Position numbers and translations under genes: made by a program. Below are positions 26,509 to 30,623 of a stretch of DNA of 64,000 bases, piece after piece (within the stretch, counting starts at the first letter, position 1; every line of letters begins with the position of its first letter). The DNA is taken from contig JANXBS010000003.1 in NCBI GenBank assembly GCA_025060615.1, positions 48,441 to 112,440 of the forward strand, given 5' to 3'. This DNA comes from Anaerolineae bacterium (GTDB taxonomy: Bacteria; Chloroflexota; Anaerolineae; DUEN01). The notes beneath the pieces are model-generated. The model ran no database searches and was not told the origin of the DNA. It was given only the letters and a program-made list of their open reading frames with translations.

Positions 26509-27267
26509 ATGCGTGTGCTGGTCCTGTCTGATATCCACGCCAACCTAGCCGCTCTGGAGGCGGTGTTGGCCGATGCCGACGGATTCGGATACGATGAGGT
26601 CTGGTGTCTGGGCGACGTGGTCGGCTACGGCCCAGATCCAAACGAGTGCATTGAACGGCTGCGCAATCTGCCTAACAAACTCATCTGTGTGGCCGGCAAT
26701 CACGACTGGGCCGCCTTGGGACGGCTGGACATCGAAGATTTCAACCCCGAAGCGCGGCAGGCTGTCCAGTGGACTCAGGCAGCGCTGACCCCAAGCCATC
26801 GCGCCTGGCTCGAGAGCCTGCCGGACATTCCTATCGTCCTGGGCCGCTACACCATCGCGCATGGCAGCCCTCGCCATCCCGTGTGGGAGTACATCCTCAC
26901 CCCCAGCGTAGCCCACAGCAATTTCGCCCATTTCTCCACCCCATACTGTCTCGTCGGACACACGCACATTCCTATTATCTACCGACTGAGCGAAAACGAG
27001 ACAGAAGGCCGCGCCCGTTGTCAGGCGCTGAATCCGATCCCCCATCACTGGATCGCGCTCGCCGGCTCCCATCGCTTAATCCTGAACCCTGGCAGCGTTG
27101 GACAACCGCGCGACAGCGACCCCCGAGCTAGCTACGCACTGCTAGACGTCGAGGACGAGCTCTGGATGTACCGTCGGTTACCTTATCCTGTTGAGCTCAC
27201 CCAGATGCGAATGCGGGAGGCTGGCCTGCCTGATCGCCTGATCGCCCGCTTAGCATACGGTTGGTAA
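26509..27267 (+). CDS. Calcineurin-like metallophosphoesterase
   Basis: 252 residues, without signal peptide. Metal-binding motifs occur in order: S-D-I-H-A-N at 8-13, G-D-V-V-G-Y-G-P near 38, G-N-H-D near 64, and G-H-T-H-I-P near 150. This arrangement is that of the YfcE/MJ0936-like phosphodiesterase family with two metal ions. The natural substrate is not clear. AGGAGG lies shortly before the ATG. Confidence 0.92.
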   Translation: MRVLVLSDIHANLAALEAVLADADGFGYDEVWCLGDVVGYGPDPNECIERLRNLPNKLICVAGNHDWAALGRLDIEDFNPEARQAVQWTQAALTPSHRAWLESLPDIPIVLGRYTIAHGSPRHPVWEYILTPSVAHSNFAHFSTPYCLVGHTHIPIIYRLSENETEGRARCQALNPIPHHWIALAGSHRLILNPGSVGQPRDSDPRASYALLDVEDELWMYRRLPYPVELTQMRMREAGLPDRLIARLAYGW

Positions 27268-27325: not shown

Positions 27326-28195
27326 ATGAGCCGTATAGCCATTCTGTGGATTCTCGCTAGCCTCGTCCTCGGCGCGTGCGCTCCTGCGCAAGCTCCTCAG
27401 ACGGAACCTGTTGCGCCGGCCGTGGTGCCGAGAGCGGAAGCCGAGCCGTCAGAGAGGCTATCGCCCGATCAGGCGCCAAGTTTGGCGCCCAGGATGATTG
27501 TGAAACGAGCCGACCTCACCGTGGTGGTGCAGGATACTTTGGCGACCCTTGACGCGATCCGAGAAGTGGTAGAGAGCATGGGCGGATATGTCACTGACTC
27601 TAACCTCTACCGAGTGGACGGCCAGATGCAAGCTCGCGTCACCGTTCGCGTGCCAGTGGATCGCCTGAACGATGCCTTGAGGCAGATCAAGGACCTGGCT
27701 GTGCGGGTGGACCGCGAGAACACCTCGACAGAAGATGTGACAGAGGAGTATACGGATAACGCCAGCCGGCTGCGCAACCTAGAGGCGACCGAACAGGAGC
27801 TGCTGGCCCTGCTGCGCGAGGTCCGGGAGAGGCCGAACGCCACAGCCGATGAGATCTTGGCCGTCCACCGCCGGATCACAGAGGTGCGCGACGAAATCGA
27901 ACGACTGAAGGGGCGTCAACAGCTTCTGGACCACCTAGTCGCGCTGGCCACAATCGCCATCGAGATCATCCCGGACGAACTTACCCGGCCCATCGTCGAG
28001 CGAGCATGGCGGCCGCACCAGACCGCGCGCGAGGCCTTTCGCGCTCTGCTCACCGGGCTGCGGTGGCTGGCGGACCTGGCGATCTGGATTGTGATCTTCG
28101 TGCTGCCTATCTTGGTCTTGGTCGCGCTGCCGTTCGTGGCGCTGGTGCTCATCATCCAACGCATCCGCCAGGCTGGCCGCCGGCCGAATCCGTAG
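27326..28195 (+). CDS. DUF4349 lipoprotein with C-terminal membrane helices
   Basis: 289 residues. The signal ends in L-V-L-G-A-Cys18, a lipobox, followed by a Pro/Ala/Glu linker. About 55-215 matches DUF4349: the I-V-K-R-A-D-L-T-V-V-V start, G-G-Y-V-T-D-S-N, and V-P-V-D-R-L-N-D-A-L, then a coiled-coil-like helix (about 130-205, Leu/Glu rich). A hydrophobic C-terminal region (about 240-280) can cross the membrane. Family function is unknown; it is often an envelope-anchored protein in Chloroflexi and Firmicutes. It converges with the next gene 16 bases away. Confidence 0.85.
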   Translation: MSRIAILWILASLVLGACAPAQAPQTEPVAPAVVPRAEAEPSERLSPDQAPSLAPRMIVKRADLTVVVQDTLATLDAIREVVESMGGYVTDSNLYRVDGQMQARVTVRVPVDRLNDALRQIKDLAVRVDRENTSTEDVTEEYTDNASRLRNLEATEQELLALLREVRERPNATADEILAVHRRITEVRDEIERLKGRQQLLDHLVALATIAIEIIPDELTRPIVERAWRPHQTAREAFRALLTGLRWLADLAIWIVIFVLPILVLVALPFVALVLIIQRIRQAGRRPNP

Positions 28196-28211: not shown

Positions 28212-30623
28212 CTATTTGTGATTGCGTTGTAAGCGGTGATAGGTCTGAAACCATTCCGCCAGCTCCGATTTACGGCGCTCTTCCTCCTGGGTCGCTTGAG
28301 AGGCGCGAAAGGCGTCAAGGCGGCGGGAGATCTCGGCGTGCACTTCCCTAGGATTGGGCACGAAGACGAATCGAAACGCTCCCACTTCAGCCGCCGTCTG
28401 AATGGTGACGTCGCCGTACCCCAGCACAAAAGCGAGCAGATGGGGAATGTGAGAATTCACATTCTGTACCATGCCTAAGCTGGCCTCTCGTCGCTCCTCT
28501 GAGAAAAAGAGCGGCTTCTTTTCAATGTCAATGATGCGATCGCTGGTCACGATGTAGACATCGTTGCGCCAGTCAGCGTACTGCCAGAGCAGCCAAAGTA
28601 CCGAGGCCAACTCTAGCAATGAGAAGAGAAACACGGCAGAGGCTGTCTCTACCCCTTGGGCTCTTAAATCCCCCCAGCTCTGCCACACGAGTACAGCTAC
28701 CGCGGGCACTGCGATCGTGAAGAGGAGCGGCCACCCTGTTCGCAGCAAGAGGTTCAACCAGTGTTTGCGCCACGTGATGCGATCTCCCTCTTCCTCGCGA
28801 AATGGGAAGAGGCGAAAACGGAGGGAAGATCGGCGCGAGGTTGTCCCTGACGCCGACGTGGCCGGCCAGACCGTCAACGTTGCCTGCGGTGGCGCGGGGA
28901 GTATGCCCAACTCCAGATGCTCCTCTAGTTCGCGACGGATGCGCTCTCGGCTGGTAGCTTGAACGCCGGCCAGCCGTCGGGTCATCTGTTCGAAGATGTG
29001 CTGCTTGGCCGTCTCCGGATCCGGTAGATAGTCGAACTCGAGCCGTCCAACGGTGGCCGCGGTCTGCACAGTGATGGTGCCATACCCTAGCAGCTGTCCT
29101 AACCAGCGACGGCGGACGTGGATGTCCTGGATCTTCTCCAACGGGGCCTCGAAGCGACTTTCTGAGGTAAGAATGACTCGCTCCTGGTGGATCACCCGGC
29201 GCGTAGTCACAATGAGCCAATCGTTGGACCAGTCTATGGCCACCCAGGCGATGCACCCCAGAATGAATATCGTCAAGGCTAGGATTGACTCTTCAAGGAT
29301 AGGCCGGATATGCTGTCCGAGCCCGTAATAGGCGAGGGCGAAGAGCGCAAGCCAGAGGAGCACCAGGATGGCGATGCGCCTCACCAGTAGCCACCAATGC
29401 CTTCGCGAGCTGTACACGACCACTTCTTCCCGCTGAGCCGAGACCGCAATCGGTTGCCGCAGCTTGACCTGGACGGTCGGGCTTAGGCGGAGGCGCTCTC
29501 TGGCCTCTGGATGTTCCCGCAGGAAATGCTCGAAATCGTCGTGGTACAGCACCAGCCAGTTTGTGGGGATCACAGCCTCTACCGTGGCGTCGCGTGGCTC
29601 CTGCAAGATCAGGGAGGTCTCACCGAATGCAGCACCTGGCGTCAAGAAATCAGTGGGCCGCTCCTGCCTTCGCTCATCGGTGACCCGCACGATGGCCTCG
29701 CCAGCGTCGAGGATGTAAAAGGCATTGCCTGGCTCTCCCTGTCGGGTCACCTCTCGGTGCGCCGGATAATGCACCCAGCAGACGTACCCGCTGAGCGCCC
29801 TCAGCTCTTCGTCGCGGAGGGAACGGAACAGCTCGGTGTTCCGCAACCGCTGTACGATGTCAGGAGGCCTCGTCAGCACCCTGCGTACGATGGGGAACGC
29901 CGTGAGGAACCACTCAAAATCGGACGTCCTCATACAGTATAGAGAGGTCAAAACCCGAGCCCGCGCCGAGCTCACCCGTCGGCTTCCCAGAGCTTGGTGG
30001 CCGCCGAAGTAATGGCCGGCTGCCAGCACCACCTCGCCTGCTTCCCCAATCCGCGCTATCGCCTGCCCTCGATCAATCAGGCAAAGGGCCGGCTCAGCCT
30101 CGCCTGCGGAGAGGATCTGCTGGTCAGGCCCCACCTCGCGTTGCTCAAATAAATCCACGATCCAACGCAACTGCTCGTCTGTTAAGATGCTCAGCAGCGG
30201 CATTGCCCGGAGGCGACGAACCGCGGCCGTCCTCAACAGCCGCTCTCTTAGAGCTGGATAGCGAGCCTGTAATCGGATCAAATCGGTGGCCGGCAGCCAC
30301 AGCAAGAGGCTTGGCTCTAGTGCTTGGGCATTGGATAGCTGAACGCCATCCTCCAAAACGCTACGAAAGCCGAAGGCCTGCCCTTTTGATACGATGCGCC
30401 GGAACACCTCTTGCCCGTTTTCATCGGTGCGCCATTCCAGGACTTGGCCCTCTGCTACCAGAAAAAGGCCAATCGCAGTCTCACCCATGTCACCCTGATA
30501 GAAGATCGGGCCGATGACCTCTCGCCTTTGCGCTTTAGCGGCGATCTGTTGTAGCAGCTCTTTGGGCAGGCCTTGGAGAAGCGGGGCGTTTTGCAACAAC
30601 GCTAACACTTGGTTCGCTTCCAT
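28212..30623 (-). CDS. Membrane protein with three cNMP-binding-type and two bacterial PH domains
   Basis: 803 residues from the ATG at 30623, four bases after cdsA. About 1-120, 135-250 and 255-375 look like three cyclic-nucleotide-binding-type beta-barrels; the third has the clearest phosphate-binding cassette (G-E-T-S-L-I-L-Q-E-P-R-D-A-T) and the first two are degenerate. A membrane hairpin (about 405-455) then leads to a bacterial PH domain (bPH2) with R-V-I-H-Q-E-R. A second membrane hairpin (about 615-675) precedes another PH domain (D-R-I-I-D-I-E-K-K). No enzyme domain is visible. The order suggests an envelope sensor that couples ligand binding to membrane state. Confidence 0.75.
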   Translation of the reverse strand: MEANQVLALLQNAPLLQGLPKELLQQIAAKAQRREVIGPIFYQGDMGETAIGLFLVAEGQVLEWRTDENGQEVFRRIVSKGQAFGFRSVLEDGVQLSNAQALEPSLLLWLPATDLIRLQARYPALRERLLRTAAVRRLRAMPLLSILTDEQLRWIVDLFEQREVGPDQQILSAGEAEPALCLIDRGQAIARIGEAGEVVLAAGHYFGGHQALGSRRVSSARARVLTSLYCMRTSDFEWFLTAFPIVRRVLTRPPDIVQRLRNTELFRSLRDEELRALSGYVCWVHYPAHREVTRQGEPGNAFYILDAGEAIVRVTDERRQERPTDFLTPGAAFGETSLILQEPRDATVEAVIPTNWLVLYHDDFEHFLREHPEARERLRLSPTVQVKLRQPIAVSAQREEVVVYSSRRHWWLLVRRIAILVLLWLALFALAYYGLGQHIRPILEESILALTIFILGCIAWVAIDWSNDWLIVTTRRVIHQERVILTSESRFEAPLEKIQDIHVRRRWLGQLLGYGTITVQTAATVGRLEFDYLPDPETAKQHIFEQMTRRLAGVQATSRERIRRELEEHLELGILPAPPQATLTVWPATSASGTTSRRSSLRFRLFPFREEEGDRITWRKHWLNLLLRTGWPLLFTIAVPAVAVLVWQSWGDLRAQGVETASAVFLFSLLELASVLWLLWQYADWRNDVYIVTSDRIIDIEKKPLFFSEERREASLGMVQNVNSHIPHLLAFVLGYGDVTIQTAAEVGAFRFVFVPNPREVHAEISRRLDAFRASQATQEEERRKSELAEWFQTYHRLQRNHK

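What the first reader, a model, noticed from the sequence alone, without database searches (positions are those of the whole stretch)
28212..30623. Envelope protein with three cNMP-type domains and two PH domains
Three cNMP-type barrels, membrane hairpin, bPH2, membrane hairpin, bPH2, with no enzyme part. The first two sensor barrels look degenerate. This arrangement suggests a novel signal-to-membrane link and it lies directly after cdsA, a phospholipid-synthesis gene.
Basis: partly seen in the sequence, partly recalled or inferred. Interest (0 to 1): 0.6.

Follow-up and report, generated by a model that had tools for sequence, protein, structure and literature searches.

The report
Cyclic-nucleotide-sensor fused to membrane PH protein
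This gene encodes an inner-membrane protein that joins cyclic-nucleotide-sensing barrels to two membrane-anchored PH domains; versions of it occur in most genomes of its bacterial class (Anaerolineae), yet its function has not been described in any paper I could find.

Summary
The 803-aa gene lies on the minus strand (28212-30623). It encodes three cNMP-type barrels followed by two [transmembrane hairpin + bPH2] units, with no enzyme domain. Pfam, a family-specific profile and a confident AlphaFold2 model agree. Barrels 1 and 2 lack the Glu/Arg pair of the phosphate-binding cassette; barrel 3 (E335, R344) keeps it.

It is not a one-off. About 340 of 396 genomes sampled from the class have a strong homologue. 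Of 150 proteins read, 111 carry one barrel and 32 carry three. Elsewhere in the phylum the paired hairpin-bPH2 module occurs without barrels (20 of 20 read), so the sensor looks like a class-level addition.

My best reading is a cytoplasm-facing membrane protein in which the membrane-proximal barrel binds a cyclic nucleotide and shifts the bPH2 module. Ligand binding is inferred. An intact Glu/Arg pair goes with a class III cyclase in the genome (52:2 versus 55:40), but tree-independent contrasts are few (2 for, 0 against). The output of the bPH2 module is unknown.

The parts
28212..30623 (-). Whole gene, 803 aa; starts 4 bp after the cdsA stop codon, converges with a DUF4349 gene (27326-28195, +)
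30222..30602 (-). CNBD1 (aa 8-134); phosphate-binding cassette lacks the Glu/Arg pair
29856..30218 (-). CNBD2 (aa 136-256); lacks the Glu/Arg pair; below the Pfam cut-off on its own
29472..29852 (-). CNBD3 (aa 258-384), membrane-proximal, canonical cassette
29574..29636 (-). Phosphate-binding cassette of CNBD3, GAAFGETSLILQEPRDATVEA (E335, R344)
29226..29396 (-). Membrane hairpin 1 (aa 410-466), preceded by RRHW, ends in DWSND
28917..29225 (-). bPH2 domain 1 plus long C-terminal helix (aa 467-569)
28803..28916 (-). Low-confidence linker (aa 570-607) between the two hairpin-bPH2 units
28563..28760 (-). Membrane hairpin 2 (aa 622-687), preceded by WRKHW, ends in DWRND
28218..28562 (-). bPH2 domain 2 plus long C-terminal helix (aa 688-802); repeats unit 1 at 32% identity (E 4e-19)

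Best explanation
It is a polytopic inner-membrane protein whose soluble parts all face the cytoplasm. Three tandem CNBDs form an N-terminal sensor stack on a duplicated membrane module, [TM hairpin + bPH2] x2. Only the membrane-proximal CNBD3 keeps a canonical cassette, so I propose that CNBD3 binds a 3',5'-cyclic mononucleotide made by the cell's class III cyclase. CNBD1 and CNBD2 would be structural or oligomerisation modules, or bind something else. Binding would move the CNBD3 C-terminal helices, which lead via a short linker and the invariant E400 into hairpin 1, and so change the packing or lipid/protein contacts of the bPH2 units. Shown: the architecture, the duplication, the conserved cassette in CNBD3, a cyclase homologue in the genome, and barrel-less homologues outside the class. 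Inferred: topology, ligand binding, ligand identity, the conformational switch, and the membrane output (possibly envelope or antimicrobial-peptide protection, by analogy with YdbS/YdbT and DdE/DdF).
For: Architecture from Pfam, family profile and fold. CNBD3 cassette FGETSLILQEPRDATV carries the Gly/Glu/Arg that contact ribose and phosphate in CNBD proteins; PMC11224242 reports these conserved with that role. In the 32 three-barrel proteins the Glu/Arg pair is intact in 0 of 32 first, 2 of 32 second and 6 of 32 third barrels. The genome has one class III cyclase homologue and other CNBD proteins. Across 149 proteins an intact pair goes with a PF00211 cyclase: 52 with and 2 without, against 55 and 40 for broken pairs (Fisher p 1e-7); by family p 0.03. 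Only 39 of 13,989 column pairs of similar frequency are as extreme, 7 of them in this direction. Topology: two hairpins, with RR/RK motifs before each and DWxND after each; PHb domains of the DUF304 family are predicted intracellular (PMC2817789).
Against: The Glu/Arg pair is broken in 95 of 149 family members, so cyclic-nucleotide binding cannot be the universal function of the family. Sister-pair contrasts are nearly uninformative: 18 pairs, 2 concordant, 0 discordant, 15 with no intact pair in either tip, 1 with it in both. As single columns E335 and R344 rank only 24th and 61st of 530. The only cyclase homologue here has an unusual motif (MNYTAIGNTVVLAKRL), so its product is uncertain. No conserved neighbour points to a function.
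Confidence: 0.5

Rival explanations
1. The CNBDs are ligand-free protein-protein or oligomerisation modules (or bind non-cyclic ligands such as nucleosides), and the protein is a constitutive membrane scaffold built on the bPH2 pair.
For: The Glu/Arg pair is lost in 95 of 149 members and in almost all first and second barrels of three-barrel proteins. One lineage has a different but conserved motif in barrel 1 (GRLELD..EGQLG). Trypanosomatid PKA is a precedent for a CNBD that binds nucleosides instead of cAMP (PMC10959531, abstract). The membrane module occurs without any CNBD outside the class.
Against: The pair is intact in CNBD3 of all four genomes of this family, and its retention tracks cyclase presence more than almost all column pairs do.
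Confidence: 0.35
2. It is a Pycsar-like anti-phage effector (CNBD plus transmembrane part, like PycTM) that damages the membrane when a phage-triggered cyclase makes cUMP or cCMP.
For: A CNBD joined to membrane helices resembles PycTM in outline. PADLOC profiles PycTIR and a TIR effector hit the CNBD3 region weakly (E 6e-8 and 1e-7).
Against: The PADLOC hits cover the CNBD region and Pfam finds no TIR domain. The barrel-less L202 homologue has no PADLOC hit. No cyclase is adjacent: the sole PF00211 gene is on another contig beside cytochrome c maturation-like genes. Occurrence in about 340 of 396 genomes of the class is unlike the patchy spread of defence systems.
Confidence: 0.04
3. It regulates phospholipid synthesis together with CdsA, its upstream neighbour.
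For: A 4-bp gap and the same strand as cdsA make co-transcription here likely; a scan found no terminator-like site between the two genes.
Against: cdsA was not detected beside the homologue in 35 other genomes, and is on other contigs in G002 and G003 of the same family. uvrC is the upstream neighbour in several lineages.
Confidence: 0.05

Closest known systems
YdbT / YdbS (COG3428 / COG3402) bPH2 membrane proteins of Bacillus subtilis, and DdE/DdF of Enterococcus faecalis
   Same: Membrane-anchored bPH2 units. PMC8657885 describes YdbS with two TM segments and one PHb2, and YdbT with six TM and three PHb2.
   Different: Here four TM and two bPH2 units plus an N-terminal CNBD stack. Sequence-level membership was not tested against the COGs. 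No bacteriocin gene was noticed among the neighbours examined.
PKA regulatory subunits and apicomplexan PKG (tandem CNBDs)
   Same: Tandem CNBDs; the best PDB sequence and fold matches.
   Different: No kinase domain; linked to membrane bPH2 units instead.
CNBD-gated channels (MlotiK1, SthK)
   Same: CNBD coupled to membrane helices (sequence matches to CNBD3 only).
   Different: The CNBD precedes the membrane part, and no ion-channel domain was found.
Pycsar effectors PycTM / PycTIR
   Same: N-terminal CNBD on a membrane or TIR output.
   Different: No adjacent cyclase, near-core distribution, bPH2 output.
Barrel-less paired hairpin-bPH2 proteins of other classes of the phylum (e.g. L202, L206, L214)
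   Same: Same paired module, RHW and DWRND-like motifs, A3 profile E down to 1e-105.
   Different: No CNBD; some have extra N-terminal hydrophobic segments.

Membership tests
PF00027 cNMP-binding domain | Profile score above curated cut-off | tested here: met
   Whole protein 121.6 bits against 27.5; singly barrels 3 and 1 pass, barrel 2 (24.4) does not
Functional cyclic-nucleotide-binding CNBD | Gly-Glu and Arg of the phosphate-binding cassette, in CNBD3 | tested here: met
   G334, E335, R344 present
Functional cyclic-nucleotide-binding CNBD | Glu and Arg of the phosphate-binding cassette, in CNBD1 and CNBD2 | tested here: not met
   Pair absent in both, as in nearly all three-barrel relatives
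Functional cyclic-nucleotide-binding CNBD | Measured ligand binding | not testable with these tools
   Needs purified protein
PF03703 bPH_2 | Profile match and PH fold | tested here: met
   51.7 bits against 22 for the protein; Foldseek to 3dcx/3hsa; second copy weak in Pfam but an internal repeat of the first
YdbT (COG3428) | Six TM and three bPH2 units (PMC8657885) | tested here: not met
   Four TM and two bPH2
Pycsar effector | Genomic linkage to a pyrimidine cyclase | tested here: not met
   No cyclase beside the gene; sole PF00211 on another contig
Family 2B encapsulin (NF041163) | HK97-fold shell, score above 400 | tested here: not met
   86.9 bits; the best stretch (aa 10-133) lies in CNBD1
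Cyclic-nucleotide-gated channel | Ion-channel domain | tested here: not met
   No such Pfam match

The most novel reading that the evidence does not exclude
A near-core, class-wide signalling device: a cyclic mononucleotide directly gates a membrane-embedded bPH2 pair with no enzyme, channel or DNA-binding output. The extra barrels in some lineages would integrate other (non-cAMP) ligands, so one membrane protein reads several cytoplasmic signals.
Probability: 0.2. Interest if true: 0.75.

Novelty: new variant of a known kind. Interest (0 to 1): 0.42.

Why it matters
Outputs of cyclic nucleotides in bacteria are mostly known as transcription factors, channels and enzymes. A sensor fused straight to bPH2 membrane domains, present in most members of a large environmental class, would be a different output route. 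It also offers a handle on what bPH2 membrane proteins do, which is an open question: the natural presence or absence of the CNBD, and of its Glu/Arg pair, makes it testable.

Tried and rejected
cdsA partnership: rejected by gene order. Conserved operon partner: none; uvrC immediately upstream in 7 loci and nearby in an eighth, and DUF4349/metallophosphoesterase convergent downstream in about 10, all looking like inherited gene order. Encapsulin and Pycsar membership: rejected. Cyclase co-occurrence as proof of ligand: weakened by tree-independent pairs and the single-column control. Single-protein search of genome contigs returned nothing; the A3 alignment was too diverse for that search; the A4 alignment named the relatives. 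Literature searches for the domain combination found no description, within an open-access library only.

Full report
WHAT IS THERE. The gene runs 30623 to 28212 on the minus strand and encodes 803 aa. It starts 4 bp after the cdsA stop and ends 16 bp from the stop of a convergent DUF4349 gene. Pfam reports three cNMP_binding stretches and two bPH_2 stretches and no enzyme domain. A family profile and hydropathy give CNBD x3, then [2 TM - bPH2] x2. AlphaFold2 from a 35-sequence alignment is confident (pLDDT 89.3, pTM 0.71), and a second model of the membrane half alone gives the same picture (pLDDT 88.5). Foldseek of that half finds bacterial PH structures 3dcx and 3hsa among the first hits. 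The two hairpin-bPH2 units are an internal duplication, 32% identical, E 4e-19, each framed by an (R/K)HW motif before and a DWxND motif after the hairpin. An even number of TM helices and basic residues before each hairpin put all soluble domains in the cytoplasm; this is inference, consistent with the intracellular prediction for DUF304 proteins in PMC2817789.

DEGENERATE BARRELS. In CNBD proteins the cassette Gly-Glu and Arg hold the ribose and phosphate (PMC11224242). Barrel 3 has them (E335, R344); barrels 1 and 2 do not. This is the family pattern: among 32 three-barrel proteins the pair is intact in 0 first, 2 second and 6 third barrels. 'Degenerate' may not mean decayed: in one lineage barrel 1 carries a strongly conserved alternative, GRLELD..EGQLG.

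HOW COMMON IT IS. Of 396 genomes drawn from the class, 383 match the profile at E 1e-20 or better; by my count of that table about 340 reach 1e-80. Of 150 proteins read, 111 have one CNBD, 5 two, 32 three, 1 four and 1 none detected. This sample was taken from the best matches, so it is biased towards close relatives. In a 201-genome sample of the phylum, the matches outside the class lack the CNBD part, apart from two CNBD-only matches, and all 20 of the out-of-class proteins I read lacked a CNBD. The simplest history is that a pre-existing paired bPH2 membrane protein gained a CNBD in this class, with later changes in CNBD number.

NEIGHBOURS. cdsA is upstream only here. In relatives G002 and G003 of the same family it lies on other contigs, and it was not detected beside the homologue in 35 other genomes (some of those contigs end within a few kb). 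The 8-member uvrC cluster (identified from its sequence) lies immediately upstream in 7 loci and nearby in an eighth. DUF4349 lies convergent downstream in about ten. Neither suggests a pathway; the cdsA link is best seen as a local rearrangement.

LIGAND. The genome has one class III cyclase homologue (G000:C19), a receiver-cyclase beside cytochrome c maturation-like genes, with an atypical motif (the gene naming and the comparison with the usual motif are from memory). Across 149 proteins an intact Glu/Arg pair is associated with a PF00211 gene in the genome: 52 with and 2 without, versus 55 and 40 (p 1e-7). Because relatedness inflates such tests I ran controls. At family level p is 0.03. 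Among 13,989 column pairs of similar joint frequency, 39 are as extreme, 7 in the same direction. But singly E335 and R344 rank 24th and 61st of 530 columns, and of 18 tree-independent pairs differing in cyclase only 2 are informative, both concordant. I read this as modest support. Cyclic-nucleotide binding by CNBD3 is likely in this protein but is not a universal feature of the family.

OUTPUT. Nothing here shows what the bPH2 pair does. The nearest studied proteins are YdbS/YdbT and DdE/DdF; the latter are reported to be needed for transport of a leaderless bacteriocin (PMC8657885). An envelope or membrane-protection role is an analogy only.

VERDICT. A real, conserved, uncharacterised family: a known membrane module with a known sensor in a combination I found no description of.

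Noticed in passing
L067:8512-11262 (G000:C4 about 187.5-190.3 kb): A second multi-CNBD protein in the same genome: four CNBDs, one TM segment, a Pro/Thr-rich linker and a C-terminal part with no Pfam match. Similar frames of about 900 aa with CNBD matches occur in many genomes of the class.
   Followed up: partly
L248:6415-7971 (G000:C19): The only PF00211 cyclase homologue of the genome carries a receiver-like domain, has the atypical motif MNYTAIGNTVVLAKRL and lies beside cytochrome c maturation-like genes.
   Followed up: partly
Family f15 homologues, e.g. L086, L126, L140, L146, L148, L162, L170, L172, L174, L176, L199: CNBD1 of this lineage has a strongly conserved motif GRLELD..EGQLG in place of the usual cassette, suggesting a retained but different role.
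   Followed up: no
window 27326-28195 (+) and 26509-27267 (+): DUF4349 and metallophosphoesterase genes stay convergent with the CNBD-bPH2 gene in about ten genomes of several families.
   Followed up: partly
window:28212-30623: NCBIfam's family 2B encapsulin model hits the CNBDs at 86.9 bits (cut-off 400), a possible source of misannotation for CNBD proteins.
   Followed up: yes
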